From: Phytophthora colocasiae
Lineage: Eukaryota; Oomycota; Peronosporomycetes; Peronosporales; Peronosporaceae
Assembly (NCBI GenBank): GCA_018806915.1
Contig: JAGKQI010000075.1
Location: forward strand, 124,001 to 188,000
Direction: 5' to 3'
Length of the DNA: 64,000 nt
Of the stretch, positions 5,750 to 45,756 are shown piece by piece. Position 1 is the first letter of the stretch; the number at the start of each line of letters is the position of its first letter. A program made the position numbers and the translations under genes. The notes under the pieces are model-generated. The model saw only the letters and a program-made list of their open reading frames with translations, was not told the origin of the DNA and searched no databases.

Positions 5750-6207
5750 TGTAACGGGGTAACACGTACAAGTGGCTACACCACTTGTAACTCTAACAGT
5801 TGTGATAACTGTTAGAGGTTGGAAAGGGACCTCAAACCTTGGTGTGCTGTACACACCATTGGCTACATGGGCGAACCACATCATTGGGTGGTTCGTGTGC
5901 ATTTGCGCATGTTATTGGCAGAAAGTAACGGATTTCTACCAATCACTGAGCAGAGTTTCTGCCAACCACACGTTGGCAGACCCTTTAGAAATAGATAAGC
6001 AGTTTTAGGAGGCCCATAATTGGCTTATGCCAAACTCAATAACAGTTCTCATTTTACGGTATTTTGCAGTATTAATTACTTATATTTGATTTAGTTATAC
6101 TTATTTAAATAAGTTTAATTAAATCAAGTCTAATCTAACTTGCACGCTTCCTCATACACGTAAGTGCACGTGTACACCACCTAGTGGGTCTAAGTAGACC
6201 CATTACA
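5750..6207 (+). repeat. LTR of element E (458 bp)
   Basis: It starts TGTAACGGGG and ends CCCATTACA, giving TG...CA termini. The primer-binding site starts at 6210 with TGGTAGCACC after a 2-nt gap. Strong hairpins follow each other inside it: 5767-5789 (9-bp stem) and 5791-5817 (11-bp stem). Confidence 0.9.
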
Positions 6208-6292
6208 CCTGGTAGCACCTCGTAGTCCATCCCATGACCGACTGCTGTTCGTTCGTGTGGAGTCATACGAACGCGGGGTAGAGAACTCCCCA

Positions 6293-6716
6293 ATGGATGA
6301 GAGATCCACTGGGACCCCACACATGTCCGTGACGCGCACGGACTGTGCTCACCTGTCAGACCCAAAGTGGAAGGCTCTCCAAAGACTCTCGCAAGTCAAT
6401 GGAGAGGCGGAGGTAGCGACGTTGCTTCGTACGCTATCGCCGACAGAGCAATACGGTGTTGCTCTGGGGTACATTTTTAAGGAGCAACGAGATGTTGCTG
6501 CCTCGGTGGCTTCCCCTAAGCCACGCGTGGAGTCGTTGAAACTCCACGTGAGTACCTACACGGGGAAGGAGGACGAGACCCTCCTTCGTTGGCTTGTCGA
6601 ACTCGACACAGCCGTTGCGGCTCGACGTATCGTCGATCCGATGTCGAAGGTCGCGTTCGCCATGTCATGTCTTGGCGGACGTGCGAGGAGTTGGGTCTAT
6701 GGGCGCCGACTCTCGG
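6293..6716 (+). pseudogene. E gag fragment (N-terminal part)
   Basis: The ATG at 6293 opens MDERSTGTPHMSVTR. It continues with capsid-like sequence (WKALQRL, EQYGVALGYIF, VESLKLHVSTYTGKED, LLRWLVELDTAVAARR, KVAFAMSCLGGRARSW), which is the retrotrans_gag region of lineage I. The frame ends where the D LTR joins after GRRLS. The longer homologue in D continues from this point for another ~180 codons, so about half of gag is lost here. Confidence 0.8.
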
Positions 6717-7172
6717 TGTAAGGGTCTGCTTAGACCTATTAGGTGGCGTACACGTGCGCTTACGTGTATGAGAAAGCGTGCAATTAGAGTAGACTTAATT
6801 TAAGTATACTTATTTAAATAGGTATAATTAAATCAAATATAACTAAATTAAACTGCAAAATACCGTAAAATGAGAACTGTTATTGAATTTGGCATAAGCC
6901 AATTATGGACCTCCTAAAACTGTTTGTTATCTATTTCTAAAGGGTCTGCTAAGTGGTTGGCAGAAACTCTGCTCAGTGATTGGTAGAAATCCGTTACTTT
7001 CTACCAATAATATGCACAAATACACACGAACCACCCAATAATGTGGTTCGCCCATGTATCCTTTGGTGTGTACAGCACACCAAGGTCTGAGGCCCATTTC
7101 CAACCTCTAACAGTTATCCTAACTGTTAGAGTTACAAGTGGTACAACCACTTGTACGTGTAACCCCGTTACA
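6717..7172 (-). repeat. 3' LTR of element D (456 bp)
   Basis: On the + strand it reads TGTAAGGGTC ... CCCCGTTACA, which is TG...CA. The purine tract GGGGGATGG lies directly inside it on the - strand (7173-7183). It is clearly more diverged from the LTR at 22241-22697 than the E LTR is. Confidence 0.9.
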
Positions 7173-7273
7173 CCATCCCCCCGTTAAGATTCGGCGTATC
7201 GGTCTCGATACGTCAATCAACAGAACTTGACAAGACCGTCAAGTTCCCGAGAGAAATCCGAGTTCATTTCGCA

Positions 7274-8842
7274 ATGGACTCGCCAACGCCCACATCTCCG
7301 TCCGCTTCTGCGGACGCGCAAGCCTCACCTGCTGCCTCTGCAGCAGGAACAACGACCTCAGCAGTGCCCACTAGCACTGCTGCTTCCAGCGGTCCGACAG
7401 AGAAACTCTCTGTCACCAAGTACCATGCTCTCCATAAGGAGAAGCATGAGAATAAGAAAAAGTCTTCTTCTCTAGCAGAGATTAAGAATCCTGCTGTCCC
7501 TCTCAAAGAACTCTATGGAGAGGACTACGAAGACATCCTCGACTACGACGAGGATGTCGAGGAGGGGGAGGTTGATGTCAAGGCTCCCGCTCCCGTGTCT
7601 TCGTCCGAAGACACGTCAGACTCACCCGTGGGATCTCGACGACCTCGTGTTGAGGCCTCGGACGCTTCAAGCTCGAAGCGTCCGCGCAGTGATGATGAAG
7701 CGTCCCCCATGTCGAGGGCGCTCACTGCCTCGCGCACTGATCCGCCAGTGCGCGCACCATGGATGCCTACTGAGGCTGAGATCCATGACCGGTTCGGTGC
7801 TAGTTCATCACCGAACCCGATACTGTTGTACTCATGCAACAGTATCAACGACGACGATGTCGCCGAGAAGGTTGTCTTTGAGTCGGAGACTCAAGTCTTT
7901 GAGTCGGAGACTCAATGACGCGACTACTATATCGGGCTCTTCCATGAGCTCCGATACTATGCAGCGAAGAAGGCTTCGCGCAAAAGCAAAGTGCCAGAGT
8001 GGCAGGCACTTTGTCAGTCGTGGAACGCCTTTGTTGACAACTTCAACAAAGACCCGAAGGGGTATCGCGAGCGCGTTCTCGCGACTCGCGATCGCTACTA
8101 CACTTACACCACTCGTGGTAAGTGTGAACGCCTCCATGAACAGTGCATGGAAGCGAAGATCCCATGTGCCGTTCCCTTTGGCACATTCTGCCCGTGTTGC
8201 CAGCCCTTGGCAACACGCCTCTCCGTAAGTGATATCCTGGGGTACACGGTCGTCCGTGTACCCGATCACATCAAGGAGCTCCGTGCTCGTCTTGAGCCAC
8301 GCGAAGCTCCGAGTGCTGTGGCTGACCGCAGCACTCCTCCTGCAGGGCTTACCCCTGCAAGTTATGGTGGGCTTCATTCGCCCTCACCATTTCCGGAACG
8401 TCCTCCATCAGGACGTTCCGCGGCTCCCACGTATCTCGCTGGGGAGGAAATCCTCTCCAACGAATACGAAAACGAACCCCTTGAGAGTTCGTTCTCTTAT
8501 GAGCCACGATCCGCTCCACAATCCAGCGGATCGATCCACGCGCGTCGCGCAACGGCGGCGGAGGGGGTGGGAACACTCCCTCCGAGTGGTCAACGCTATG
8601 ACCATGACGATCGTGCCCTGCACGATCGAGTTGCTGCGCTGGAGCAGACACAGAGTGCTGAGATAGCGGCTCTGAAGCAGGAGGTTCGTGTCCTCCGTGC
8701 TGAGGTCTGCGAGGCAGCTCAGACTGCCTCAAACCTCTCGTCCGGTCTTGGGACGAGAGTGAACCGGTTGATCGACCGTGTCGACGGTCTCGAGAAGGCC
8801 TTCCAGGCCTCTCGCACTCCTCAGTCGGACTACCAACCCTAG
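7274..8842 (+). CDS. D antisense ORF (one in-frame TGA): Ser/acidic/Cys/coiled-coil protein
   Basis: The ORF opens at ATG 7274, 101 bp inside the 3' LTR, and runs in one frame to 8842 (~522 codons) with a single TGA at 7916-7918. The frame resumes at once after it (RDYYIGLFHELRYY). Order: Ser/Thr/Ala-rich N-terminus; KYHALHKEKHENKKKSSS; an acidic block (YGEDYEDILDYDEDVEEG); a basic patch (SSSKRPRSDDE); a Cys-rich segment (KCERLHEQC, then FCPCC) that might bind zinc; Pro/Ser linkers; and a C-terminal coiled coil (VAALEQTQSAEIAALKQEV). The last ~490 bp overlap the chromodomain end of D pol on the other strand. No known family is recognised. The N-terminal Ser block, acidic EEGEV motif and C-terminal coil also occur in the C antisense ORF. 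Confidence 0.65.
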
Positions 8843-9332
8843 GTAGTCCGTGCTGCACGTACGGCTTCAACCGCCCGACGTAGAAGGTCGGGTGTAGCCT
8901 CATGCTGGACGGTATGTCCAGCCGGTACGCGTTACCATGCCGTTCAAGTACTTTGAACGGCCCAATGAATCTTGGAGCAAGCTTGCTTGCTCCAAAGTCA
9001 GACACTGCATGTTTAGGCAGGTTTTGTGTAGCTAACAAAACTAATGAACCCACTTTGAATTCATTTATGTTGCCCCTACCAACATTATCAGCGTTCAGCT
9101 TCTGTCGATCGACAGAAGCTACGATAGCATCCTGGACAAACCGTATTACGGCTTGTCTTCGCTGGACAAAGTCTAGCGCACCCGAGCTGAATCCTTTCAG
9201 CTTGTCGCCCTTGTCAGCAGCAGGCCCTGCCTGCTCGCTATCATATTCCATGTCTGTGCCCGGCACAGACATCGCGCGCTCGTTCCTGCTCGAACGAGAC
9301 GTCGCACGCGTCACCGCAGTTGATAGTGTGCT
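8349..9332 (-). pseudogene. D integrase C-terminus and chromodomain
   Basis: On the - strand this frame continues from the integrase core at 17466. It encodes the C-terminal SH3-like part (FKVGSLVLLATQNLP, KLAPRFIGPFKVLER, THPTFYVGRLKPY variants), a long Pro/Ser/Arg linker and a chromodomain (WIVERIVAHKRTNSQG, FRIRWRGFPPQRDTWEP). The linker and chromodomain part is the mirror of the antisense ORF coiled coil, so both strands are open over ~490 bp. This segment has no stop of its own, although D pol upstream has frameshifts. Confidence 0.8.
9328..9332. repeat. Target-site duplication of element A (left copy)
   Basis: GTGCT at 9328-9332 is repeated exactly at 17461-17465, on either side of element A. 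Removing A and one copy restores the D integrase frame. Confidence 0.95.
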
Positions 9333-9753
9333 TGTAACGGGGATGTTACACGATTGTTTCTCGTTGGTGTGTGACACACGTGGATACATTTATGTGGGTA
9401 CATAATGGTGTGTGACACTCATGATACACTTATGTGGGTACATAATGGTGTGACACACACGAGTAGATACGTAGATGGCCTCAGAGCCTCACGTTGCATT
9501 TTGATTAGGATTTAGTATGTTAGATACTAAATCCGTTACATTTAGGATTAGGGCAATAAAGTCAATAAAAATCAGTTTGCATTTTACATAGTTAGTGTTA
9601 GTCCTTTGTTATAGGGACACTGACTCTGTGAGTCCCGTATTTAGTGGACTACTTGGTTCTTGTATAGAACCGAAGGCTAGTGCCTTGCAAGCAGGACTCT
9701 ACGAGTCAACTAAACTTCCTCTGTGCGGTGCACACCTACGCAGCCCCGCTGCA
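9333..9753 (+). repeat. 5' LTR of element A (421 bp)
   Basis: It starts TGTAACGGGGATG and ends GCCCCGCTGCA. It is closely related over its length to the C LTRs at its 3' half, and pairs with 17040-17460. Confidence 0.95.
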
Positions 9754-9755
9754 TC

Positions 9756-9772
9756 TGGTAGCACTAGTAGTC
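9756..9772 (+). other. Primer-binding site of element A
   Basis: TGGTAGCACTAGTAGTC begins 2 nt after the LTR. The first eight bases are complementary to the TGCTACCA 3' end known for eukaryotic initiator tRNA-Met. Pairing beyond that is not obvious. C (TGGTAGCACTTGT) and D/E (TGGTAGCACCTCG) share the start and the same 2-nt gap. Confidence 0.6.
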
Positions 9773-9810
9773 AATCCAACTCCTGAGTTGAAGACTGTTT
9801 CTCTGTGAGA

Positions 9811-10704
9811 ATGGAGCCAGAAGCATACGCTCACTTGACTCCGAGTCAGCGGGACACGCTTAACAAGCTTACGTCCTTGCTGGGCCCGGAAGGTACGGCG
9901 CACCTTGCGTCCCAAGGGCCGGAGGCCGTCAACGCGCGCCTCGAGGCATTTGCCTCGTACGAAAACGCTCTCGTCGAGCACATTCAGCGGAATGTAAAAG
10001 GGGTCAACCCCGCTCCGAGAGCTAAGCCCGTCACGCTCAGCGTGAAGACCTTTCAAGGGCACGAAGGAGAGAACCTCCTGTTGTGGACCCGAGAGGTCGA
10101 AATGGCCATGGGGGCCGCTATGCTTCAGTTGGAAGGCCAACGCGTCGCGTTTGCCATCTCTAAGCTCGAAGGACGAGCACGAGAATGGGCCTTGACGTCT
10201 GGGACGTCGGTAGAACTGGCCTTCCCCACTTGGAGTGAGCTTAAGGCCAAGCTTACGCAAGTGTTTGCTCCGCCTAACCAGGCGTATCGCGTGCGGTCAC
10301 GCTTCCTTGCTTGCCGACAGGGCAAGAAGGACCTGGTGGACTACGTCCAAGAGCTGCGCACGCTCATTGCCGGCATGGCTGCCGACCCTCTACCTGAGGT
10401 GGTCACCGTGACCATCTTCATGGAAGGTTTACGAGCTGGCGTGGCCAGGGCGGAGGCATTCTGTCAGAATCCTCGCACCTTCGAGGACGCTGTCAGCGTG
10501 GCATTGAATGCCGAACACAACTTTAAGTTGTCGAGGGTCGATGCTAACAGCACAGGGTCCGGGGGACCCGAGCCCATGGACCTCAGCTATGCTGAAGATG
10601 AGGTAGCTGAGCTACGAGCTGCGGTGCAGCGTATGAGCACCCGCCGGTGCTATACATGCGGCAGTCCCTCACACCTGAGGCCCAACTGCCCTCTGCGCAA
10701 ATAG
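9811..10704 (+). pseudogene. A gag (capsid and CCHC nucleocapsid), ends at a premature stop
   Basis: From ATG 9811 ([17 protein letters not shown]) the frame covers a retrotrans_gag domain ([22 protein letters not shown], given here as landmarks [11 protein letters not shown] and [41 protein letters not shown]). It ends with a CCHC zinc knuckle ([14 protein letters not shown]). The stop TAG at 10702 stands where element C has GAG and reads on for ~24 codons. It is therefore a point-mutation truncation just after the knuckle. Part of the 3' end is copied again in the downstream tandem duplication. Confidence 0.85.
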
Positions 10705-11768
10705 CGCGCCGGCCAAAATGGCCGCAACCCTGCCGCGGGTCCCGCGTTGGGCTCTGCCCAGGGAAACGCCGGCTTCCAGTAGACGCGGGGCGGTCTACTG
10801 GGGAAAAACTGAGTTCTGCAGTGCGTGAGAGGCACTGGGGCTCAGCCCCGAAGAGCTCCGTGCTCTTGAACACGGAACGTGTGAGCAAGCAGGGCTTGCT
10901 GGTCGTCCAGGTGGACGTGAAGGGCTTTGAGAAGCCGTGGATCGTGTTGATCGATTCGGGGGCGTCTGGCAACTACGTCAGACGCTCCACCGTTGAAGGT
11001 AGTCAGCAATATGCTGAGGCGCTTCGAGCGCGAAGAGGTGACACAGTCACAGTCCGTCTAGTGCGCACGCTCATTGCCGGCATGGCTGCCGACCCTCTAC
11101 CTGAGGTGGTCACCGTGACCATCTTCATGGAAGGTTTACGAGCTGGCGTGGCCAGGACGGAGGGATTCTGTCAGAATCCTCGCACCTTCGAGGACGCTGT
11201 CAGCGTGGCATTGAATGCCGAACACAACTTTAAGTTGTCGAGGGTCGGTGCTAACAGCACAGGGTCCGGGGGACCCGAGCCCATGAACCTCAGCTATGCT
11301 GAAGATGAGGTAGCTGAGCTACGAGCTGCGGTGCAGCGTATGAGCACCCGCCGGTGCTATACATGCGGCAGTCCCTCACACCTGAGGCCCAACTGCCCTC
11401 TGCGCAAATAGCGCGCCGGCCAAAATGGCCGCAACCCTGCCGCGGGTCCCGCGTTGGGCTCTGCCCAGGGAAACGCCGGCTTCCAGTAGACGCGGGGCGG
11501 TCTACTGGGGAAAAACTGAGTTCTGCAGTGCGTGAGAGGCACTGGGGCTCAGCCCCGAAGAGCTCCGTGCTCTTGAACACGGAACGTGTGAGCAAGCAGG
11601 GCTTGCTGGTCGTCCAGGTGGACGTGAAGGGCTTTGAGAAGCCGTGGATCGTGTTGATCGATTCGGGGGCGTCTGGCAACTACGTCAGACGCTCCACCGT
11701 TGAAGGTAGTCAGCAATATGCTGAGGCGCTTCGAGCGCGAAGAGGTGACACCGTTACTGTCCGTCTAG
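10355..11768 (+). repeat. 707-bp tandem duplication at the gag-protease boundary of A
   Basis: Bases 10355-11061 and 11062-11768 are direct copies starting TGCGCACGCTCATTGCC, with only scattered differences. Examples are GCCAGGGCGG versus GCCAGGACGG and GTCGATG versus GTCGGTG. The duplicated segment covers the end of capsid, the CCHC knuckle and the protease start including DSGAS. Because 707 is not a multiple of three, the duplication itself breaks the frame. Element C has a single copy. Confidence 0.9.
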
Positions 11769-12969
11769 CGACGGGCGTCCGTGTCACGGCAGCCAAGGTC
11801 CCCATGGACCTGCGGCTGAAGTTCTTGGACTTCGATAGCGTGGAACGCAGCTTGGTCCTGGACCTGGATTCGAGGTACGACCTCATTCTTGGCATGGCGT
11901 GGCTGGAGCGCCACGAGCCATAAATTGATTGGAGGTCGAAGACCTTAGGTGCTACGCACTTCTCTCCTAGTGGAGCTTTGGCGAGTCATGAACCCACCTC
12001 TGCTAGGAAGCAGAAGCGCTATTGGCGCGAGCATCGAGCCGAGTCGGCTATGATGCTGGAAGTCGGTGTGTCCGAGTTGGTGGACAGCACCAAGTACGAG
12101 GACCGCAGTCCTGTTGAGCGCGTAGCGCTGGTTGACAGTGAGTCAACGTGTGGGCAAAGCTCACTTAACCCCTGTGGGGCGGCACGTACTCCGCCGAGTG
12201 ACGCCGGTCATGGACCGTCACTGGATGCCGATGGCATCGGGCCTTACCAGGCCGTGAACTGTAGGGCGGCACGTACTCCGTCGAGTGATACTGGTCGTGG
12301 ACCAAGTCGATCGCTGAGTGTCTCTGACACTGGACCTGTTACGGTCATTGATTGTGCAGCGGCACGTACTCCGCTGAGCGGCATCGGTCGTCGACCGAGT
12401 GGATCGCAGAGTGTCACTGACACTGGGCCTGAAGGGGCCGAAACCTGTGCGGCGGCACGTACTCCGTCGAGTGGACGTTCGTCGGCTAGGCGACGACGTC
12501 GTAAGGCCCTATGGGCTAGTCGCTCTGCGTCTGAGTCGTCCGTGACGTCAAGTGTCAACGCACGGGAGGGCTGTGGGCAGCTATACACTCTGGTTGATGG
12601 AGTGGACGGCAGTGCCGAAGGCAGCGTCCTGCTGGACGGACTGCCGAGTGTTGACAAGCTCGTTGAGCTAGAGGAGATGTCGTTCGCCGACTTTGGCGAT
12701 GCCGTGAAGGCTGGCGAACTCGCCGAGGTGGTCATCGTCGACCTGAAGAGGAGTTAAACTCATCGTCCCTCGTTGACGAGTCCGTCTTGGCCGAGGTCAA
12801 GAAGGCGCTGAGCGCCAGGAGTGGATCGGAGATCCTCAAGAATCCCTCGGATCCCTTCTACTCCTTGCTGAAGGAATATGGAGACGTTGTCTCGAAGGAA
12901 CCACCGAGTGGCCTGCCTCCTGACCGAGGCGTTCGTCACGAGATCGACTTAGTTCCCGGAACTAAATAG
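11500..12969 (+). pseudogene. A protease and protease-RT linker
   Basis: The second copy of the duplication leads into an aspartic protease with LIDSGASGNYVRRSTVEG and the C-terminal LILGMAWLERHEP. A stop (TAA at 11921) then replaces the Trp codon present in C. The linker up to 12757 contains four repeats of an ARTP(S/P/L)S-type unit (12180, 12270, 12360 and 12460). A further frame (12787-12969) reaches RGVRHEIDLVPGTK and stops at TAG where C has TAC (Tyr). Confidence 0.8.
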
Positions 12970-12972
12970 TGC

Positions 12973-14151
12973 GTGACCCGGCAGTGGCCTCTTCCTAAAG
13001 AGCAATGCGACGTCATTGACGCCTTCTTCCGTGCGAAGCACGCGGCGGGTCTCGTGCGCGAGAGTAAGTCTCCGCACTCCGCGCCAACGTTCTGTGTCAG
13101 AAAGCCGAATGGCAAGTGGCGTATCGTTCACGCTTTTAACAAGCTCAACGCTGCCACGATTCCGGCGCAGACGCCGATTCCTAGGAAGGATGTTCTTCAG
13201 AACAACATGGTGGGTTGCACCATGTACAGTGCGCTCGACTTAGTCGATGGGTACTATCAGCTGCTCATGCGAGCCAGTGATATTCCGCTTACAGCGGTGA
13301 GCACCCCGAGCGGTATGCTCTGGGAGTGGCTCGTCATGCCCCAAGGGCTGTCGAATGCACCTGCAACGTTCAATCGTCTAGTGACGCAGTTGTTCAGGCC
13401 CCTACGGGCATTCGCACAGACGTACTTTGACGATGTGTTCGTCCACAGTCGTGCTGAGCACGGGAAGACTGATGTCGAGGTACACGTGGAACACGTGAGA
13501 GCAGTGCTCGAGTGCATGCGCACCAACAAGTTGTACGCCAACGCGGACAAGTGCGTCTTTGGCGCGGAAGAAATCCCTTTCCTAGGGTGCTTCATTGGGA
13601 AGCATGGCCTTCGTGCTGATCCAGCAAAGGTCAAGGCCATTGTGGACTGGCCGGTTCCCTTGAACCAGAAGGAGTTGCGTAAGTGGCTGGGCTTGGCCAA
13701 CTACTTGCACAAGTACAGCGAGAACTACGCTGAGTTGGCTCGGCCACTGTCGGATCTCCTTAAGAAGGATGCCGAATGGATATGGCGTGCTGAGCACGAG
13801 AGTGCGTTCACTTGTATCAAGGATAGCCTGCTTCAGGCACCAATACTGGCGTTGCCAGACCCCGATCGCCCGTTCATCGTCGTCTGCGACGCCTCGGACT
13901 TTGCCATCGGCAGTGTTTTGCTACAAGCGGACGCCGACGGGCGCGAACGCGTCATTGCGTTTGAGTCTCGGCAGCTCAAGGCTGCTGAGAAGAACTATCC
14001 AGTTCATGACAAGGAGCTACTTGCGATGAAGTACGCTCTCGTCAAATTCAGGGTTCACCTGCTCGGCTCCAAGCCGTTTGTGATCTACACGGATCATGCG
14101 TCACTACGCACAGCGACGCAGTCGCCTCACCTCTCGCAGAGAATGGCTTGA
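12973..14151 (+). pseudogene. A reverse transcriptase and RNase H
   Basis: The long open stretch holds a complete RT: HSAPTFCVRKPNGKWR, YSALDLVDGYYQLLM, MPQGLSNAPATFNRL and the catalytic QTYFDDVFVHS. A Ty3-type RNase H follows with all expected acidic landmarks (VVCDASDFAIGS, VHDKELLAMKYAL, VIYTDHASLRTA). It ends at TGA 14149, where C has CGA (Arg). Unlike lineage II, RT has only the normal short spacer between LSNAP and YFDD, and there is no second RNase H. Confidence 0.9.
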
Positions 14152-15012
14152 TGGCTCTCCTTCTTTGCGGAGTATAACTTCGAGGTGAAGTACAAGCCTG
14201 GCAGGCAGAACGTCCTCGCTGACGCGTTATCACGTCGCCCGGACTATGAGTTATCTCATGTCACCTCGGTGACGTCGTCCGTGACGGACATGGTTCGAGC
14301 AGCGTACGCTCAGGACGACTCTTGTGTCGCGCTGCTTCAAGCTCTAGGGAGCGATGAGTTTAAGGACTCAAAGGTGACTCTGTCACGACGCCTAAATGCG
14401 AGACTCCAACGCTATAGCCTGGAAGGCGGTCTGCTGTACAGCACGGGTCAGGATGACCCACCACGTGTGGTGGTTCCTCACGATGAGGACCTGAAGTATC
14501 GTATCCTCTATGAGGCCCACGACACGCCCACAAGCGGCCACCTCGGTCGCGAGAAGACCTACGGCTCGGTGAGCTCCATGTACTGGTGGCCGAAGATGTA
14601 CAAGTGGGTCAGCACATATGTGCACACGTGCGAGACGTGTCAGCGGGTTAAACCCTCGCCGCATGCGGCAGCGCCTTTGGCGAGCTTGCCTGTACCCTCT
14701 GGGTGTTGGCAGTCCATGAGTATGGACTTCGTGTATGGCCTGCCGAAGGATACGGCAGGCAACACGGGCGTTGTGGTCTTTGTTGACCGTCTGAGCAAGA
14801 TGGCTCACCTAGCGGCTGTGCCGGACACCGTCGATGGCGCTGGTACAGCGACGATCTTTATCGATCGGGTCTTCCGCCAGCATGGGCTGCCGGAGACCAT
14901 TGTCTCGGATCGAGACCCCAGTTTGACGGGTCGATTCTGGACGTCCGTCTTCAAAGTGCTTGGCACTCGACTGGACATGTCCACGACGGATCCTCTGCAG
15001 CGTATGCGCTGA
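14152..15012 (+). pseudogene. A integrase zinc domain and part of the core; catalytic Glu deleted
   Basis: After the end of RNase H (NVLADALSRRPDY) comes the integrase HHCC domain (HDTPTSGHLGREKTYGS, CETCQRVKP) and the core with the first two acidic residues (SMDFVYGLPKD; VSDRDPSLTGRFW). Where D has TADHPQTDGQTERVN, A reads TTD and is then shifted to PLQRMR-stop. About 50 bp, including the codon for the third catalytic residue (Glu), are missing. The junction GACGGATCCTCTGCAG is identical in element C. Confidence 0.9.
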
Positions 15013-16090
15013 AACGCCGAAGCGTTGGAGCGCTATGCTCCCTCTCGTTGAGTTCTCAATGAACAATGCGGTGCATGCCTCGACAGGCTTCACTCCGTTC
15101 TACGTGAATGGCCTTGCGCGTCCCGCTCACGCCGCCACGTGGTGGCCTTGGGCTTGGTGGGGGAGAGGCTGTGCCGTCGCTCGACTCCGAGCTCGCTGAT
15201 ATCAGCCCTTCTGCTGTGCGTAAACAAGTCGATGACTTCCTCTCGGTGAGATTGGGCGTATTACGCCGTGTGCGTGACGCGATGGCTGAAAGCCAGGATG
15301 TTCAGAAGGAACAAGCTGATGCAAAAGGTAGAGGCAATATGTGGGAATTTAAGGTCGGTGACCACGTTTTATTAAACGCTAAGAACCTGCCTACACACGC
15401 AGTGTCAGCCGTCTTCAAGACGAAGTTGCGGCCGCGCTTCATTGGACCGTTTACGGTCGTGGCCAAGAAGGGCCTGGCATACACGCTTGACTTGCCAAAG
15501 CGTATGCGAACACATCCTGTGTTCTACGTGGGCTTGCTTAAGCCATATCGAGACCCTGCTCTTGTGAGTTCTGAGGCGCTGGCGCCGAGTCGGACGAAGG
15601 CTGCACGGCAGCAGGTGGCAGAACCACAGGTGGTTGCATCCGAACCAATAGGTCTTGTCAATCCGGAGCAACGTGATGCCCGAGGTCATAGACCCGCTGA
15701 TGCAGCACCAGAGGCGACTCAGACCGGTCCCCGCGACTCTAGGTCTCCTCGAGACCAGTCGCTAAGCGATGGGTCTGATGACCGACGTGGTGGTCGTGCT
15801 CCTTCACCGAGCCGACGCGGGTCTGCAAGCAATGCAGCGCGTCTACACTCGCAGCGCGAGAACCCATCGACCGCTCGTCCTCTTCCTGCTCTGCTCGATG
15901 AGCAAGGTGAGCTTCACTATCACGTGGATCGCCTGATGGCGCGGCGTCGTCGCCAAGGACACAACCAGTATCTGGTGAAGTGGCGAGGTTACCCTCACTG
16001 ACAGAACTCGTGGGAGTTTGAGGTGCCACTACGGCAGGATTGCCCCGACGTCGTTGACGCGTATGATCGGGCACACCCGGTGTCAGACCG
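15013..16090 (+). pseudogene. A integrase C-terminus, linker and chromodomain
   Basis: After the deletion the sequence resumes as VCAETPKRWSAMLPLVEFS in another frame, then shifts near 15120. Next come the C-terminal SH3-like region (WEFKVGDHVLLNAKNLP, RPRFIGPFTVVAK, HPVFYVGLLKPY), a Pro/Ser/Arg-rich linker and a chromodomain (YHVDRLMARRRRQGHN, YLVKWRGYPH). A TGA at 15999 interrupts the chromodomain where C has a Ser codon. The antisense strand still shows a short stretch (APQTPTSS, TSPDTG) like the C antisense ORF. Confidence 0.8.
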
Positions 16091-17039
16091 CCCGGTGGTG
16101 CGACGGAGTCGCCGGGTGCCAAGCACCTCCCACCAAGGTGGGAGTCCACAGGGTCGTTGCTGAGCTCAGGCTCTGCCCCGTAGCTGCAATACTTGCAGCG
16201 AGCACGTCGGTGCCGTCGACGTGGCATCGAATGCTCAAACTGCAAGCGCAGTAGAGCTACATGCGCCTCGCGCGCGTGTTTCAAGGGTCTTTGACCCTTT
16301 ACCAACACTGGCCTATGGCCCGGAGCTTCGCGATCATGAAGCGAAGATGGTTCGTGATGAACAACCGTCGTAATGACGTTCTGTCTAAACGGCAAGTGGT
16401 GATGGAAACGGATTCTATCCGATCACCTGACGCTAGAAGCGTTCAATGGGTATGACTATGTCATGAGGCACTGTGGATATCAGGGATGCCAATGCATTGG
16501 ACCCCGCATGCTGCATAGCAGTAGGAGGTAGGTAAGCTCCTCCTGAGCGACAGCTTAGCTGTCTGGTGCTCGTTGTCGTGTCTATGACTGTGCTGAGCAC
16601 GTGTATTCACAAGACACAGTGTCTGTGACACATAGTGGCGCTTGCGCCTGCTTCAAGGACAACTTGGGCATCAAGCCCTGCACACAGTGCTCATCCGAGG
16701 GTCACATTAACTGTGAAGCGAGTGGGCCCCACTGTTCGTGGAACCGTTGGTAGCTTGGAAGGCTTGCCCTGTGGATCACTGATCCAGTAGTATCATAGAT
16801 ACGCCACCTGTGGCCTTCTTTCCATGCCCGTAGAGCCCCTTGACTCGAGCCAGAAGGCTCCTATGCTTGGTAAGCATTGGGCCCAAGTGTGTACCAAGTG
16901 GCATCGCGTACGGAGGCGTGTAACACGCACGAGAGACAGCGCCGTCCGCGCAAGGCAAGGTGCCGTGGCCATTGGACGATAATCGCGTCGTGTGTTTACA
17001 CTTTCCGGATACGGTATCCGGAATCTTGGTGGGGGAGAG
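16091..17039 (+). other. A: 3' internal region without a readable antisense ORF
   Basis: This ~950-bp stretch lies where C and D carry the bulk of their antisense ORF. On the - strand I find only broken short frames. It still has many short inverted repeats. The purine tract TGGTGGGGGAGAG (17027-17039) abuts the 3' LTR and is the likely plus-strand primer. Confidence 0.6.
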
Positions 17040-17460
17040 TGTAACGGGGATGTTACACGAATGTTTCTCGTTGGTGTGTGACACACGTGGATACATTTAT
17101 GTGGGTACATAATGGTGTGTGACACTCATGATGAACTTATGTGGGTACATAATGGTGTGACACACACGAGTAGATACGTAGATGGCCTCAGAGCCTCACG
17201 TTGCATTTTGATTAGGATTTAGTATGTTAGATACTAAATCCGTTACATTTAGGATTAGGGCAATAAAGTCAATAAAAATCAGTTTGCATTTTACATAGTT
17301 AGTGTTAGTCCTTTGTTATAGGGACACTGACTCTGTGAGTCCCGTATTTAGTGGACTACTTGGTTCTTGTATAGAACCGAAGGCTAGTGCCTTGCAAGCA
17401 GGACTCTACGAGTCAACTAAACTTCCTCTGTGCGGTGCACACCTATGCAGCTCCCCTGCA
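17040..17460 (+). repeat. 3' LTR of element A (421 bp)
   Basis: It starts TGTAACGGGGATG and ends CTCCCCTGCA, and is followed directly by the GTGCT target duplication. It has the same length as the 5' copy. Confidence 0.95.
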
Positions 17461-17465
17461 GTGCT

Positions 17466-20191
17466 GCTATCAAGTGCATTCTGCGGTTGTTCGGACGCAA
17501 CCGTAGATCCTCCCCCACTTAAGGAGGAAGCTACCCCACCGAGCATGCTCGGCAATCGTGGATGCCTCATGGCGTTCACGTAGAACGGTGTCGAGGCATG
17601 CACCGAGTTGTTGATGGCAAACTCTGCCATCGGCAAGCACTCGCTCCAATGCGGGAACGAGTGAGCGTAGCTCTTCAGCGTGTCACCCAGTACGCGGTTG
17701 ACACGTTCGGTCTGTCCGTCCGTCTGCGGATGATCCGCAGTCGACATTGACAATTGTGAACCAAGAAGTGTAAACACTTCTTGCCAGAACCGCGCTGTGA
17801 AGCGTGGATCACGGTCCGACACAATGTCGAGCGGCATGCCATGGTGTTTGAACACCATGTCCACAAACAGTCGCGCAGTCTGCGAGCCTGCGAGAACTGC
17901 GCAGGCTTCACGCGTTGACAAACCTCGCAAGCACGTACGTACTTGCGCATCCACTTGTACTGGTGGTTCCAGTAGAAATCACGCGTGAGAAGAGTGTATG
18001 TCTTCTCACGACCCGGATGCCCTGCCGTAGGGGCATCGTGATACTCGAACATGATCCTCAACCGGAGGTCATGATCATTCGGAACGACAATGCGATCCGC
18101 ATTGTCGTCTACTGCACTGTACAACAGTAGGCCTTCATGTACACGATAGCGGGGTACACGAGCCCGAAGATGAGGGGTTAGCTTCCGACGTGCTACGTCG
18201 GAGGGTGCTGCGAGGAACTCCAGCAGCCCCTTCGCGTCTGCATCCCTTGCATACGCGCTCATCACGTCGTCAATCAACGTTGACGACGGCACACTTGTCC
18301 CTACGATGCCAACTGTGTTCGCATCGACCGTCTCCGCATAGTCAGGTCGACGCGATAACGCGTCGGCCACTACATTGAGTCTTCCGGGTTTGTACTCTAC
18401 CCGGAAGTTGTACTCCGCGAAGAAGGACAACCATCTCGCCATACGTTGCGAGATGTGCGGCGATTTAATCGCCGTACGCAATGATGCGTGGTCTATATAG
18501 ACCACGAACGGTCTACTCCCAAGTAGATACACTCGGAACTTTGCGAGTGCATACTTCATGGCAAGGAGCTCCTTGTCATGTACGGGTTTATTACGCTCAG
18601 CTGGCTTCAGCTGACGCGATTGATAGTAGACCACACGATCACGCCCTTCGTGATCGTGCTGCATCAATGCACATCCGATTGCAAAGTCGGATGCATCACA
18701 CACTACGTGGAATGGACGATCTTGGTCCGCCACGGCCAAGATCGGCGCTTCAGTCAAGCCCTGCTTGACTGCACCGAATGCCTCCTCGCACTCGGTCGTC
18801 CAAATCCACTCAGCTTCTTTCTTAAGAAGCTGTGACAACGGGCGAATCCTGCCCGCATAGTTCTCCACGTACTTGCTCAAGTACGTGGCAAGCCCAAGGA
18901 ACTGCCTCGGTTCCTTCACATTGGATGGCGTGGGCCATTCATGGATCACTCTGACCTTCTCTGGATCAGGGCGCACGCCGGCTTTCCCCACGAGACACCC
19001 CAGCACAAGTATCTCTCTCGCCCCGAAGATACACTTCTTCAGTTTCGCATAGAGCTTATGTTTCCTCATAAACTCCAGCAGCTTCCGGAGATGCACCTTG
19101 TGCATCTCAATGTCCGTCTTCCCGTTCACAGCCCGTCTGTGGGCGAACACGTCGTCGAAGTAGCTCGATGCGAAGTCGCGCACCGAGCGCAATAGATGTG
19201 TCACGCATCTATTGAACGTCGCAGGGGCGTTCTTAAGCCCCTGTGGCATGACGAGCCAGTGAGAGGAATGTCCCACTCACGCATGAGGATCTGATAGAAT
19301 CCATCACGCAGATCTAGAGCACTGAAGACAGTGCTCAAGGCCATCGAATCGATGATGACATCTTTTCGCGGTATCTGCGTCTGCTCCGGTATCGTCGCAT
19401 CGTTCAACTTGTTATACGCATGAACGATGCGCCAGCCGCCCTGTGGTTTCTTCACATAGAACGTTGGGGCACTGTGCGGGGACTTTGATTCCCGCACTTG
19501 CAAGACGACGACTTTCAAAGAAGTCGTCGATCGCTTGCACTTGTTCACGCGGCAGTGGCCACTTCCGTGTAACACAGTACTTCGTGCCCGGCACGAGATC
19601 AATCTCGTGCTGTACGCCCTTACCCTTCGGAAGCTCCGAAGGAATCTCGTCCGGGAGTACATCCTTGTACTCCCGCAGAACTTCGTAGTAGCGACTCGAC
19701 CTCAACGAGTCCCAACTCTGCTCCTCGAAGCGCTGCTTCTTAGTCTTCGCACTGAGGGAGTCATCTCCCTCAGTGATCCCATCGACGACGGGCTGCTTCA
19801 GCTCTTCGGCTTCGCGATCCACTCTCTCGATATCCGAGAGAATGCAAATTTGTTCGATGCGTCCATCGTACAAGTCCCGCGCGAAGCGCTTCCAACTCAT
19901 CGTTGGAAGTGCGGTCAACGCCGACGTGTGCGTCGGCGGATTCTCCAACCGCATCCTCTGGTACTGTAACCCAGTACCAGTACGTGTCAAGACATTCAAT
20001 GTCTCGACACTCGGTGTCTGCACTGCTGACACACCCGTCTCAGTCCCGGACTGAGACTCGCGCAGCTCCCTGAGCTTGCGTCGCGAAGGTCTACCATGGT
20101 CGTTTGCAACCGCCAGCACCTCCTGCCGCGCAGTCGGTTCCCAGAACCGTTGCGCCTCCATCAGCTCCCGGAGCTGATGAAGCAACCGCAT
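17466..20191 (-). pseudogene. D pol: RT, RNase H and integrase core
   Basis: On the - strand, RT begins with GVQHEIDLVPGTKYCVTRKW and then needs a shift near 19490 (SPHSAPTFYVKKPQGGW) and a second near 19275 (LVMPQGLKNAPATFN). The catalytic SSYFDDVFAHRR is intact. RNase H is complete (VVCDASDFAIG, VHDKELLAMKYAL, VYIDHASLRTA). The integrase zinc domain (HDAPTAGHPGREKT, CEVCQRVKP) is followed by a shift near 17900. The core has VSDRDPRFTARFW and ADHPQTDGQTERVN, so the catalytic Glu that A and C lack is present. The frame continues past the A insertion at 9332. Confidence 0.85.
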
Positions 20192-20288
20192 CGTCGCCTC
20201 CCGAAGACGACGTGCTCTCGCTAGCTTCCAGCGCTAGCGAGTGTTCGCTTGTACACATATCATCCGTTCCCAAGCGGATGTACGATCG

Positions 20289-21506
20289 CTAGTTCCCGGA
20301 ACTAGCAGCGAAGCGCCAGTGGCGGCAGCTCCCAGAGCTGACGCACGCCTTTCGGTTCCCCCAAATTCTATTTGCTTCGTCAACTCCCAGAGTTGACGCG
20401 ACGTCGTCGGCGCGACCCTTGGAGGTTTGAAGTACCTCCATGGAAACCGGTAATACCGGTACAATACCTTCTCTCAGGTGAATCGCGTTCACCTGACCAT
20501 CACTCAAGTGACAAACATCATTCAGATGTATATGCCTTAGGTGATTCACATTCACCTGACCGACGGCGACCCTTCGGCTCAGATTTCTGAGTCGACACAC
20601 ATTTTCTCGCAACGACTCTCTGAGTGGTTGGCGGTCGCCGGCGGCGATCGGAGGCAGCGGCGACGCTGCTGCCTCAACTGGGGGATTACATGCACGGCTC
20701 GGTGCATGTACAGCACTGACAGGGCCATCGCTCTCTGTCGCGCGTGTGTTGTTGAAGCGTACGAGCGTATGCTTCTCCGAGTTGATCACCGGGTCATGCC
20801 GTGCAAGCCACGGCATGCCTAATACCAAGTCGAACTTATCGTCTAGATCCAAGACGATAAGATCTTCTACAAACGTCCTTCGTTTGTAAGAGAAGCGCAC
20901 ACGGACTACGCGCTTCTCAGTCCTCACGGTGGCACCTGTTGCCAACCGCACCTCCAACACGCTGCGAGGCGTGTCGGCTTCTTCGAAGTCAAACCTTCGA
21001 AGACTTCCCTGTCGAACAAAAATGTTCGACGCGCCCGAGTCCACTAGGGCACGAAGAGAGTTCACTCTCTTCGATATCACGTTCAGGATGACAAGGTTTG
21101 GCTTGTCATCTTGCAGTTTACAGCGAGAAACTTTCTCGCTGGGGGCAGCAGCCTTCAGCGTCGCGTGTCCGAGTTCGACACGCGAGACTGCATTACCAGT
21201 AGGACGCCCTGCGCCTACTGGTCCTTGAACGCCCGCCCGCCATGCACTCGCGTGCATAGTGACCGATGTTACTGCACTTGTAACATCGAACCTTGACGTT
21301 CTTACGCTGCTGTTGACCAGCAGTCGTAGCACTCGAGAGGTCCATAGGTTCCGGACCTCCCGTCTTCGCAATAGGACGCGCCGGCTTCGGCGCGTTCGCA
21401 TGGAGTTTAGCTTGACGCCGGCTAAACTCCTCTTGCATCGCAAGGCTGATCGCCTCCTCGAGAGTATTCGGATACTCTCGGAAGAGATACGTCTTGACGG
21501 GACCAT
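20289..21506 (-). pseudogene. D protease and linker
   Basis: This frame overlaps the 3' end of gag by ~310 bp in the +1 frame relative to gag. The readable protease starts near 21170 and includes LRALVDSGASNIFVRQGS and the C-terminal DLVLGMPWLARHDPVI, the two landmarks of a retropepsin-like aspartic protease. The downstream linker is Arg/Asn/His-rich and degenerate, and a gap of broken frame separates it from RT at 20191. In lineage-I element C the protease is in the -1 frame relative to gag instead. Confidence 0.75.
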
Positions 21507-22155
21507 CTCTTAGTCCCTTCATGAACGTGACGACCTTGGTCGCCTCGTCTATCGGGTTCGCCACTATGTTCGATACCAAGTATCGAGCACGCTGGGCAAA
21601 GGTGTGAACATCATCCTTGCCCTGTTGCAGATCGAGAAACTCCGCTCTCGATCTGAACTCGTTCCTCGGAGGCTTAAACGCAAGCTTGAGTTCCTCCTTG
21701 AACTCCTCGTACGTGCTGAAGCACGTAGGATCCGAGAGTCGGCGCCCATAGGCCCAACTCCTCGCACGTCCGCCAAGACATGACATGGCGAACGCGACCT
21801 TCGACATCGGATCGACGTTACGTCGAGCCGCAACGGCTGTGTCGAGTTCGACAAGCCAACGAAGGAGGGTATCGTCCTCCTTCCCCGTGTAGGTACTCAC
21901 GTGGAGTTTCAACGACTCCACGCGTGGCTTAGGGGAAACCACCGAGGCAGCAACATCTCGTTGCTCCTTAAAAATGTACCCCAGAGCAACACCGTATTGC
22001 TCTGTCGGCGATAGCGTACGAAGCAACGTCGCTACCTCCGCCTCTCCATTGACTTGCAAGAGTCTTTGGAGAGCCTTCCACTCTGGGTCTGACAGGTGAG
22101 CACAGTCCGTGCGCGTCACGGACATGTGTGGGGTCCCAGTGGATCTCTCATCCAT
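21193..22155 (-). pseudogene. D gag (capsid and CCHC knuckle)
   Basis: From ATG 22155 (MDERSTGTPHMSVTRTD) the protein of ~320 residues contains a retrotrans_gag domain (ALQRLLQVNGEAEVATL, WLVELDTAVAARRNVD, EFRSRAEFLDLQQGKDD). It ends with one CCHC zinc knuckle (CYKCSNIGHYAREC). The frame is uninterrupted, so this gag may be intact. An in-frame GTG lies 36 bp upstream, but ATG is the expected start. The inverted fragment in E matches its first ~140 residues. Confidence 0.8.
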
Positions 22156-22221
22156 TGGGGAGTTCTCTACCCCGCGTTCGTATGACTCCACACGAACGAA
22201 CAGCAGTCGGTCATGGGATGG

Positions 22222-22238
22222 ACTACGAGGTGCTACCA
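22222..22238 (-). other. Primer-binding site of element D
   Basis: The - strand reads TGGTAGCACCTCGTAGT and starts 2 nt inside the 5' LTR. It has the same start as in A, C and E. Confidence 0.6.
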
Positions 22239-22240
22239 GG

Positions 22241-22697
22241 TGTAATGGGTCTACTTAGACCCACTAGGTGGTGTACACGTGCACTTACGTGTATGAGGAA
22301 GCGTGCAAGTTAGATTAGACTTGATTTAATTAAACTTATTTAAATAAGTATAATTAAATCAAATATAAGTAATTAATACTGCAAAATACCGTAAAATGAG
22401 AACTGTTATTGAGTTTGGCATAAGCCAATTATGGGCCTCCTAAAACTGCTTATCTATTCTAAAGGGTCTGCCAACGTGTGGTTGGCAGAAACTCTGCTCA
22501 GTGATTGGTAGAAATCCGTTACTTTCTACCAATAAGATGCACAAATGCACGCGAACCACCCAATGATGTGGTTCACTCATGTAGCCATTGGTGTGTACAG
22601 CACACCAAGGTCTGAGGTCCATTTCCTACCTCTGACAGTTATCCTAACTGTTAAGGTTACAAGTGATGTAGCCACTTGTACATGTAACCCTGTTACA
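22241..22697 (-). repeat. 5' LTR of element D (457 bp)
   Basis: On + it reads TGTAATGGGTC ... CCCTGTTACA. It joins mariner sequence at 22698 exactly at the LTR end. It is more similar to the E LTR (inverted) than to the partner LTR at 6717. Confidence 0.9.
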
Positions 22698-25161: not shown

Positions 25162-25574
25162 TGCAGCGGGGCTGCGTAGTTGTGCACGACACAGAGGAAG
25201 TTTAGCTGACTCGTAGAGTCCTGCTTGCAAGGCACTAGCCTTCGGTTCTATACAAGAACCAAGTAGTCCACTAAATACGGGACTCGCACAATCAGTGTCC
25301 CTGTAATAAAGGAACTAACACTAATTATGTAAAATGCAAACTGATTTTTATTGACTTTATTGCCCTAATCCTAAATGTAACGGATTTAGTATCTAGCATA
25401 CTAAATCCTAATTAAAATGCAATGTGTGGCTCTGAGCTAACTGCCAGCAACTGGCTACATATGTGACGTGTGAGAAACACTATGTGTAGTACACAGATCT
25501 GTGACTTGTGACCTGGATGGTGTATAACACACCAACTGTAGCCAAGGCGCACAGCGCCGTGTAACCCCGTTACA
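25162..25574 (-). repeat. 3' LTR of element C (413 bp)
   Basis: On + it reads TGCAGCGGGGCTGCG ... CCCCGTTACA. The purine tract (TTGGTGGGGGAGGG on the - strand, 25575-25588) lies just inside it. Confidence 0.95.
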
Positions 25575-25710
25575 CCCTCCCCCACCAAATCGTGTATCTA
25601 CAACTGCAGACATAACGGCCTTGTTAAGGCCTGTCACCGGCAACTTTCCGATAAAACAAATCTCTCAACGAGAGTGCGCGTGCGCGCTGGCTCAACGAGC
25701 ACATTCTCCC

Positions 25711-27501: not shown

Positions 27502-28026
27502 GCAAGCAGACGTAGAACACGGGGTGTGTTCGCATCCGCTTTGGCAAGTCAAGCGTGTATGCCAGGTCCCTCTTGGCCACGACCGTAAACGGTCCGATGA
27601 AGCGCGGACGCAGTTTCGTCTTAAAGACACTCGACACTGCATGTGTAGGTAGGTTCTTAGCGTTTAATAAAACTTGGTCACCGACCTTAAATTCCCACAT
27701 ATTGCCTCTGCCTTTGGCATCAGCTTGTTCCTTTTGAACATCTTGGCTTTCAGCCATTGCGTCACGCACACGGCGTAAGACGCTAAGCCTCATCGAGAGG
27801 AAGTCATCGACTTGTTTACGCACAGCAGAAGGGCTGATATCAGCGAGCTCGGAGTCGAGCGACGGCACAGCCTCTCCCCCACCAAGCCTAAGGCCACCAC
27901 GTGGCGGCGTGAGCGGGACGCGCAAGGCCATTCACGTAGAACGGAGTGAAGCCTGTCGAGGCATGCACCGCATTGTTCATTGAGAACTCAACGAGAGGGA
28001 GCATAGCGCTCCAACGCTTCGGCGTT
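26882..28026 (-). pseudogene. C integrase C-terminus and chromodomain
   Basis: After the shared integrase deletion the frame resumes as VCAETPKRWSAMLPLVEFS and then gives PLVEFSMNNAVHASTGFTP. From 27931 a long frame encodes the SH3-like region (WEFKVGDQVLLNAKNLP, RPRFIGPFTVVAKRD), a Ser/Arg/Ala-rich linker and a full chromodomain (YHVERLMARRRHRSQN, YLVKWRGYPHSQNSWEF). It stops at 26882. The chromodomain is complete here, whereas A has a TGA inside it. Confidence 0.85.
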
Positions 28027-30532: not shown

Positions 30533-30543
30533 ACCGCCCCTCC
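30533..30543 (-). other. Polypurine tract of element B
   Basis: GGAGGGGCGGT on the - strand directly abuts the 3' LTR, the usual position for the plus-strand primer. Confidence 0.7.
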
Positions 30544-43854: not shown

Positions 43855-43856
43855 GT

Positions 43857-45752: not shown

Positions 45753-45756
45753 GCTG

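What the first reader, a model, noticed from the sequence alone, without database searches (positions are those of the whole stretch)
6717..22697. Element D is an almost unbroken chain of perfect short hairpins
In D, perfect inverted repeats follow each other every ~25-60 bp. In the antisense ORF between 7328 and 7846 alone: 7328-7347 (8-bp stem), 7359-7382 (8), 7396-7414 (8), 7532-7558 (10), 7594-7615 (10), 7660-7683 (9), 7731-7754 (9), 7791-7817 (9) and 7819-7846 (10). In pol: 17762-17783 (10), 18084-18108 (11), 18717-18744 (9), 18811-18832 (9) and 18865-18888 (10). In random sequence, stems of 8 or more with loops up to 9 should occur about 0.06 times in 519 bp (my estimate: 8 loop sizes x 4^-8 x 519). 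The hairpins lie in conserved RT code, so synonymous sites must carry them. Possible causes are a genome-scale RNA fold for packaging or RNAi evasion, or a mutational ratchet in which fold-back copying during reverse transcription perfects near-palindromes.
Basis: seen in the sequence. Interest (0 to 1): 0.88.

Follow-up and report, generated by a model that had tools for sequence, protein, structure and literature searches.

The report
Retrotransposons tiled with perfect micro-hairpins
A group of jumping genes in a Phytophthora-like (water mould) genome is written, genes and ends included, largely as a string of tiny perfect hairpins whose size differs from family to family, which suggests that the elements' own copying, or selection acting on DNA, shapes most of their sequence.

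Summary
All 14 listed hairpins exist. The two D segments (6717-9332, 17462-22697) hold 9-20 perfect hairpins (stem 7-12, loop 0-10) per kb, in LTRs and genes alike; four in-frame ORFs have 12-25 where codon-preserving shuffles average 0.7-1.9. The interval 9333-17460 is a nested element B, not D.

The trait belongs to a clade: four Ty3/gypsy families (D, B, E, F; 63-74% aa identity in RT-RNase H) are tiled, each with its own size (median stem 9, 5, 6, 8). Of 12 loci with other YxDD motifs, 11 show no clear enrichment and one a mild excess. Most hairpins turn over between families; the property persists.

Sense-RNA folding is disfavoured for D: stems are Watson-Crick with no preference for G.U over A.C, and both strands fold equally well. 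B leans towards G.U, not significantly. Exact loop inversions in single copies, including the window's own, point to template switching. Synonymous variants shared between copies are depleted twofold in stems, so hairpins are maintained. Private mutations show no significant pair-making bias. I commit, with moderate confidence, to fold-back template switching in reverse transcription plus DNA-level retention. Ten literature searches listed no such element.

The parts
17462..22697 (-). Element D, 5' segment (5' LTR, gag, protease, RT-RNase H, integrase zinc-binding domain), hairpin-tiled
   Evidence: Hairpin counts; domains; LTRs
6717..9332 (-). Element D, 3' segment (SH3_Tf2-1 and chromodomain ORF, antisense ORF region, 3' LTR), hairpin-tiled
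22243..22697 (-). D 5' LTR, 9 hairpins (19.8 per kb)
   Evidence: LTR pair 89.9% identical over a 455-nt alignment
6717..7172 (-). D 3' LTR, 6 hairpins (13.2 per kb)
21193..22191 (-). D gag ORF (Retrotrans_gag, Ty3_capsid, CCHC)
20289..21506 (-). D protease ORF (RVP_2), 22 hairpins of stem >=7 and loop 0-10
17675..19276 (-). D RT-RNase H-integrase ORF, 26 hairpins of stem >=7 and loop 0-10
8349..9389 (-). D ORF with SH3_Tf2-1 and chromodomain; its 5' end (9333-9389) reads into the nested insert
7301..8820 (+). Region of the antisense gene, broken in the window copy (ORFs 7274-7918, 7515-8228, 7991-8842); open for 506 codons in copies L083-L085
18084..18108 (.). Example D hairpin, stem 11, loop 3
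   Evidence: centre present in 30 of 30 copies
18865..18888 (.). Example D hairpin, stem 11, loop 2; centre present in 30 of 30 copies
19591..19610 (.). D hairpin, stem 9, loop 2; the same arms occur in family E (L041, L042), where the loop is inverted in one copy (L066)
19919..19938 (.). D hairpin, stem 8, loop 4; in the window copy the loop is the exact inverse of that in 14 other copies (16 more have a one-base variant)
19259..19280 (.). Position of a D hairpin (stem 10, loop 2, in L020) whose loop is inverted in copy L055; an intermediate state occurs in L007
8972..8995 (.). D hairpin, stem 11, loop 2; AA to TT loop inversion in copy L004 and in other copies read by pattern
9333..17460 (+). 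Nested element B inserted in D; tiled with smaller hairpins (stem 4-6, loop mainly 3-5)
   Evidence: LTR pair 98.6% over 421 nt; hairpin matrix
25162..50003 (-). Second element B copy, split by element C; parts 25162-28600 and 45751-49885 hairpin-tiled
   Evidence: LTR pair 97.4% over 418 nt
28636..45752 (-). Element C (other Ty3/gypsy clade, with RVT_3 RNase H and chromodomain), LTRs 1.9 kb; not hairpin-tiled (negative control)
5748..6716 (+). Inverted D fragment (LTR plus 5' internal sequence) abutting the D 3' LTR; also hairpin-rich
   Evidence: 97.2% to 22699-21732 over 969 nt

Best explanation
D belongs to a clade of Ty3/gypsy chromodomain LTR retrotransposons (families D, B, E, F here) whose sequence is kept at a high, family-specific density of short perfect inverted repeats. 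Most likely these arise during reverse transcription: the growing single-stranded cDNA folds back on itself over less than about 30 nt, the reverse transcriptase briefly copies the nascent strand, and an imperfect palindrome becomes a perfect one, sometimes with its loop inverted. Protein-damaging events are removed by selection on the genes, so what survives uses mainly synonymous sites. Folded cDNA or DNA hairpins are then retained by selection or repeated conversion. Reach and stem length would be set by each family's own enzyme or nucleoprotein, hence the family-specific sizes. Shown here: the tiling, its restriction to this clade among the loci examined, the family sizes, Watson-Crick strictness in D, strand symmetry of folding, turnover, depletion of inherited synonymous variants in stems, and a few exact loop inversions. 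Inferred: that the element's own RT is the agent, and that retention acts on DNA.
For: Watson-Crick strictness in D: single internal mismatches G.T 7, A.C 11, others 12 over L020 and two window parts; 9 and 9 in the window copy; among states shared by >=80% of young copies in two pol pieces 41 perfect, 2 G.T, 4 A.C, 5 others. Over seven stretches of four families: internal 22:20, next outer pair 101:101, first inner pair 99:83. Strand symmetry of folding (D mean z -3.9 sense, -4.6 antisense). Inverted repeats only. Short reach: almost all of the excess lies at loops 0-10 and no stem exceeds 12. Clade restriction: all six fetched loci of the D-B-E-F clade tiled, 11 of 12 other YxDD loci not clearly enriched; in one host this points to an element-encoded cause. 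LTRs, gag, pol and antisense gene are alike in density and spacing is random. Turnover between families. Exact loop inversions of >=2 nt in single copies: three in D (the window copy, L004, L055) and one in E (L066), 4 of the 35 loop states that differ by >=2 nt in D, E, F and B; loop inversion is a published pattern of template switching (PMC8794818, passages read).
Against: Private substitutions next to stems do not significantly create pairs (13 vs 10.4 expected outside, 10 vs 8.0 inside; shared variants 2 vs 2.1 and 5 vs 5.0). Clusters of private changes do not make stems beyond chance in D (1 vs 1.3; E 1 vs 0.5; F 2 vs 0.6). Synonymous shared variants are depleted in stems (19/951 vs 71/1686, p 0.0024); unbiased conversion would spread as many as it removes, and compensated pairs are few (4 paired, 1 unpaired; slid controls 0-7). 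Two of the four loop inversions could be two transitions, and one of these has an intermediate copy; B and F showed none. The window copy is old, so its inversion may postdate insertion and be the host polymerase's work. B and E lean towards G.T over A.C (15:4, 7:5 and 5:1, none significant; B first inner pair 63:38). Density is not clearly higher in LTRs (13.2 and 19.8 per kb).
Confidence: 0.43

Rival explanations
1. Selection on self-pairing of DNA, mainly the long single-stranded cDNA (or cruciforms): short hairpins keep cDNA compact or protected, and ordinary point mutations supply them. No special mutational process.
For: Stems depleted of synonymous variants shared between copies (OR 0.46, p 0.0024) and of shared nonsynonymous ones (12/2859 vs 46/5496, OR 0.50, p 0.036), while private synonymous variants are only weakly depleted (OR 0.71, p 0.07). 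Similar density in LTRs, coding and antisense-coding sequence. Loops of D carry more private variants (OR 1.7, p 0.0008), as if the hairpins fold at some stage. Amino-acid cost of stems is small.
Against: The loop excess is absent in E and F. I know of no cDNA function that needs this (recalled), and other retroelements in the same genome do without. Exact loop inversions such as AA to TT need more than single point mutations. Projected pairs between families are not clearly compensated (117 of 282 double-changed cells paired, twelve non-independent rows summed).
Confidence: 0.33
2. Genome-scale RNA structure on the sense transcript, for packaging by Gag, stability, or hiding from small-RNA targeting.
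For: Very strong local folding (D mean z -3.9, E -3.3, B -2.0, F -0.9; C and another ORF about 0). Families differ in hairpin size, as Gag-specific signals might. In B imperfect small stems lean to G.T over A.C (15:4, p 0.10, and 7:5 in two copies; 17:5 and 9:5 with slightly different limits), in E 5:1. Phytophthora LTR elements are covered by 25/26-nt small RNAs (PMC3804510, passages read), not far from D hairpin spans (median 22).
Against: In D, the family of the finding, G.U is not favoured over A.C. Sums over families and positions are balanced, as are homologous positions of other families (G.U 215, A.C 230). Antisense folds as well. Spacing random.
Confidence: 0.15
3. Evasion of RNA silencing through small RNAs that fold on themselves in both polarities (self-complementary siRNAs), which would need perfect pairing on both strands.
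For: Explains strand symmetry and lack of wobble in D; D spans (IQR 19-24) lie near small-RNA length.
Against: B and E hairpins are short for this (median span 14 and 18); other retroelement loci in the genome show no such tiling.
Confidence: 0.06
4. Chance, composition, codon usage or assembly artefact.
For: None found.
Against: Four in-frame D ORFs at 12-25 against shuffle means 0.7-1.9; 27 centres in 26-30 of 30 copies; only inverted repeats.
Confidence: 0.01

Closest known systems
Coding palindromes in mitochondrial genes of Nematomorpha (PMC6649704; abstract and discussion read)
   Same: Perfect inverted repeats inside protein genes, dynamic gain and loss, lack of imperfect intermediates, codon degeneracy used, template switching named as a possible cause
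   Different: There repeats of up to 284 bp in some mitochondrial genes; here many hairpins of about 13-28 nt along whole retrotransposons including LTRs, with family-specific size
Template-switch mutations that create and maintain hairpins (PMC8794818; passages read)
   Same: Perfect stems, loop inversions, compensatory changes by copying one arm
   Different: There events in DNA replication of RNA genes; here a sequence architecture of an element clade, with reverse transcriptase as inferred agent, not shown experimentally
Genome-scale ordered RNA structure of some RNA viruses (listing seen; otherwise recalled)
   Same: Pervasive local folding across coding sequence
   Different: Here folding is equal on both strands and D shows no wobble use
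Chronos Ty3/gypsy elements of oomycetes (PMC5348765; passages read)
   Same: Oomycete Ty3/gypsy elements with a chromodomain
   Different: Chronos carries an extra plant-like RNase H; the D ORFs scanned showed none. Element C of the window fits Chronos better and is not tiled
Ty3 of yeast (PDB 7q5b)
   Same: RT-RNase H sequence homology to the D pol ORF
   Different: No hairpin tiling is known to me for Ty3 (recalled, not tested)

Membership tests
Ty3/gypsy LTR retrotransposon with chromodomain | LTR pair flanking gag-PR-RT-RNase H-IN order | tested here: met
   Domains in order on the minus strand, LTRs 89.9% over 455 nt; integrase zinc-binding domain found, integrase core not hit in the window copy, where the insert lies
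Ty3/gypsy LTR retrotransposon with chromodomain | Chromodomain at the end of pol | tested here: met
   PF00385 E 2.3e-10 with SH3_Tf2-1
Chronos (oomycete) | Additional RVT_3-type RNase H | tested here: not met
   Not found in the eight D ORFs scanned; found in element C
Genome-scale ordered RNA structure | Folding energy below shuffles across the sequence | tested here: met
   Mean z -3.9 in D copy L020
Genome-scale ordered RNA structure | Pairing of the RNA itself under selection, so G.U tolerated above A.C | tested here: not met
   D: 7:11, 9:9, 2:4. B leans the other way without significance, so inconclusive for B
Coding palindromes (Nematomorpha type) | Perfect inverted repeats within protein genes | tested here: met
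Coding palindromes (Nematomorpha type) | Long repeats | tested here: not met
   Longest stem 12
Template-switch products | Loop inversions between close relatives | tested here: inconclusive
   Four exact inversions of >=2 nt among 35 such loop changes, two of them also explicable by transitions
Template-switch products | Excess of new mutations that copy one arm from the other | tested here: not met
Template-switch products | The element's RT performs the switch | not testable with these tools
   Needs biochemistry

The most novel reading that the evidence does not exclude
A retrotransposon lineage whose own reverse transcriptase continuously rewrites its genome into perfect micro-hairpins of an enzyme-specific size, so that sequence architecture is a readable fingerprint of the copying enzyme and much of the synonymous freedom is spent on self-complementarity.
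Probability: 0.4. Interest if true: 0.93.

Novelty: categorically new. Interest (0 to 1): 0.86.

Why it matters
Short perfect palindromes conflict with coding and are expected to be rare in genes. Here four related element families, diverged until their third codon positions are only 39-45% identical, all carry many more than expected (D about 18 per kb of stem >=7, F about 6 per kb, E about 17 per kb of stem >=6, B about 38 per kb of stem >=5 against about 10 expected), with a family-specific size. That makes an open question testable: can a polymerase's template-switching habit, rather than selection for RNA structure, shape whole element genomes? It also offers a sequence-only marker of an element clade, a caution for anyone who infers RNA structure from folding scores, and a natural set of enzymes whose fold-back reach could be compared in the test tube.

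Tried and rejected
Chance and composition. A D-only trait: rejected, since B, E and F share it. Regular spacing: rejected (edge-gap CV 0.89 vs null 0.98 in D, 1.11 vs 0.99 in B). Hairpins as inserted repeat units: the sequences differ from one another, and 1375 nt of pol align without gaps in most copies. A pair-making bias in private variants and templated clusters: not significant. Covariation of projected pairs between families: 117 of 282 double-changed cells are paired (sum of the twelve non-independent rows), which I do not count as evidence. Shared hairpin centres: D-E 4 of 29 (null mean 0.21, maximum 2), B-E 3 of 44 (0.30, maximum 2), E-F 2 of 26 (0.08, maximum 1), D-B 2 of 29 (0.31, maximum 3), D-F 0 of 29, B-F 0 of 44. 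Codon register: the class that pairs first with second positions is rarest in D (4 of 29) and B (10 of 44), tied in E (6 of 26), not rare in F (4 of 10). Relatives outside this genome at DNA level: none found in viral or prokaryote contigs. A structure for the antisense protein could not be run. I lowered the best explanation from 0.45 to 0.43 and raised the RNA rival from 0.12 to 0.15 for the B result.


Full report
What is there. The window is part of a 92.5-Mb, 105-contig genome. Its D pol protein is closest to Phytophthora proteins (best hits of P. fragariae, P. cactorum, P. idaei and P. cinnamomi at 83-84%), so the host is a Phytophthora or near kin; I did not identify the species. Element D reads on the minus strand: 5' LTR 22243-22697, gag, protease, RT-RNase H and integrase start, then a nested element B (9333-17460), then the chromodomain ORF and the 3' LTR 6717-7172. 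Its LTRs are 89.9% identical, an old copy; 29 other copies lie on average 3.4% from it and 1.15% from each other over 1375 nt. More than 200 places in the genome match either of two D hairpin patterns (235, 203).

The observation. All 14 listed hairpins are there. Four in-frame D ORFs hold 12 to 25 hairpins of stem >=7 where codon-preserving shuffles average 0.7 to 1.9. Dinucleotide shuffles of 7852 nt of D give 13.0, 3.4, 0.8, 0.1 and 0 stems of 7, 8, 9, 10 and 11 pairs (loops 0-40); observed are 55, 29, 36, 20 and 9, plus 3 of 12 and none longer. Almost all of the excess lies at loops of 0-10. Mirror repeats are not enriched, direct and parallel-complement repeats at most about twofold. In 1375 nt of pol 27 hairpin centres recur in 26-30 of 30 copies. 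The window copy has the fewest there (23 against 24-29), so hairpins decay after insertion.

It is a clade property with family-specific size. Element B (62% identical to D in the BLASTP match of the RT ORFs) looked nearly plain at stem >=7 but is tiled with smaller hairpins: 428 stems of exactly 5 against 183 expected and 160 of 6 against 44 in 14381 nt (loops 0-18; two copies of one family, so not independent). A YxDD motif scan (1553 matches against 36 for the reversed control, about 100 listed) led me to fetch 18 loci, chosen from the list mostly for distinct motif spellings. Six of the 18 are D, B or two further families of the same clade, E (stems from 6; 75 exact motif matches) and F (stems from 7-8, sparser; 31 matches); all six are enriched. 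The other 12 carry other motif spellings: five match D or B pol by tblastn at 25-34% identity, six have a Copia-type RT domain (one of them below Pfam's cut-off), and one (L054) gave no Pfam match. Eleven of the 12 show no clear enrichment; L045 shows a mild one (stem 6: 11 vs 5.7, stem 7: 5 vs 1.4). Five arbitrary 6-kb stretches show no comparable tiling, with small excesses in L031 and L033. Median stem and span are 9 and 22 in D, 6 and 18 in E, 8 and 23 in F, 5 and 14 in B, each above its own stem threshold. D, B, E and F share 63-74% amino-acid identity and 39-45% at third positions, so the families are old.

Hairpins turn over, the property stays. In a codon alignment of one real copy per family, exactly shared hairpin centres exceed the null for D-E (4 of 29), B-E (3 of 44) and E-F (2 of 26); D-B (2 of 29) does not exceed the null maximum, and D-F and B-F share none. 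Some shared ones differ in sequence yet remain paired. Most hairpins are family-specific, and projected pairs show no clear covariation.

Is RNA folding what is kept? If sense RNA stability were selected, G.U should be far more tolerated than A.C. In D it is not: 7 G.T and 11 A.C single internal mismatches over three pieces, 9 and 9 in the window copy, 2 and 4 among states shared by at least 80% of 29 or 26 young copies, against 41 perfect stems. Sums over seven stretches of four families are 22:20 inside, 101:101 at the next outer pair and 99:83 at the first inner pair. Family B leans the other way: 15:4 in one copy (p 0.10) and 7:5 in the other, and E has 5:1; with slightly different limits B gave 17:5 and 9:5, and its first inner pairs 63:38. 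These are not significant, but RNA-level selection in B remains open. Predicted folding is as strong for the antisense strand (D z -3.9 sense, -4.6 antisense; B -2.0 and -2.3). Spacing is random.

How the coding sequence copes. Amino-acid identity is slightly lower in stem codons than outside (D vs B 85/138 and 189/284; D vs E 97/163 and 208/327; D vs F 104/164 and 210/322). In D the pairing register that requires first and second positions to match is the rarest (4 of 29); this holds in B, not in F. LTRs hold 13.2 and 19.8 hairpins per kb, the ORF sections 11.7-18.1, the antisense-gene region 19.6.

Maintenance and origin. In 33 D copies over 3973 columns, synonymous variants seen in more than one copy are rarer in stems (19 of 951 possible changes) than outside hairpins (71 of 1686; OR 0.46, p 0.0024); shared nonsynonymous ones likewise (OR 0.50, p 0.036); private synonymous variants are only weakly rarer (OR 0.71, p 0.07). 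So something removes stem changes from transposing lineages. Loop inversions are the positive sign of template switching: of 35 loop states that differ by two or more bases from the reference copy in D, E, F and B, four are exact inversions of another copy's loop. They lie in the window copy itself (four bases), L004 (AA to TT), L055 (CA to TG, with an intermediate in L007) and, in E, L066 (CA to TG). The AA to TT state also occurs in four of 37 reliably oriented copies read by pattern, so it was passed on or arose repeatedly. The two CA to TG cases could be two transitions, and inversions private to one copy may postdate insertion. Against this, private substitutions do not preferentially create pairs (13 vs 10.4 and 10 vs 8.0 expected), templated clusters are not in excess in D, and B and F showed no inversions. 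D loops carry more private variants (OR 1.7, p 0.0008), E and F loops do not.

Judgement. The pattern itself is firm. For mechanism I commit to fold-back template switching during reverse transcription plus retention at DNA level (0.43), with pure DNA-level selection close behind (0.33). What it works like: template-switch correction of imperfect palindromes and the coding palindromes of hairworm mitochondria (PMC8794818, PMC6649704). It is not a member of the latter by size, extent and setting. Ten literature searches were answered; no listed title or abstract start describes a hairpin-tiled retrotransposon. The library holds open-licence papers only, no preprints.

A second finding. Three D copies (L083-L085) carry an ORF of at least 506 codons on the strand opposite to pol, overlapping the chromodomain ORF. 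Outside that overlap, differences among the copies fall mainly on its third positions (13 of 18, 16 of 24, 11 of 18). A protein search scored 531 relatives; of the 120 listed, those with an organism name are all from Phytophthora (43-87% identity). No Pfam family reaches its cut-off. Part of the similarity could reflect the overlapping sense gene, but about two thirds of the ORF lies outside it.

Noticed in passing
window 7301-8820 (+), L083-L085: Conserved antisense gene of at least 506 codons between the chromodomain ORF and the 3' LTR of D, overlapping the former; relatives across Phytophthora, no known domain; broken in the window copy.
   Followed up: partly
window 5748-6716: Inverted D fragment (LTR plus 5' internal sequence) abuts the D 3' LTR; its inner 727 nt are 99% and its outer 243 nt 92% identical to the D 5' end, suggesting conversion between the inverted copies.
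   Followed up: partly
window 28636-45752: Element C has RT, RVT_3 RNase H, integrase and chromodomain with 1.9-kb LTRs (99.6%); resembles Chronos elements of oomycetes and sits inside a B element.
   Followed up: partly
L020 coordinates, 33 D copies: Private variants on the D sense strand outside hairpins include more G to A (80) than C to T (50); per-base rates 0.123 vs 0.090.
   Followed up: no
L041: Locus L041 carries an E-type pol beside sequence 95% identical to B over 727 and 414 nt, which looks like a B/E junction or recombinant.
   Followed up: no
window 25621-26864 (+): Element B also has antisense ORFs (212 and 300 aa) in its 3' region; their products show no significant similarity to the D antisense protein.
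   Followed up: partly
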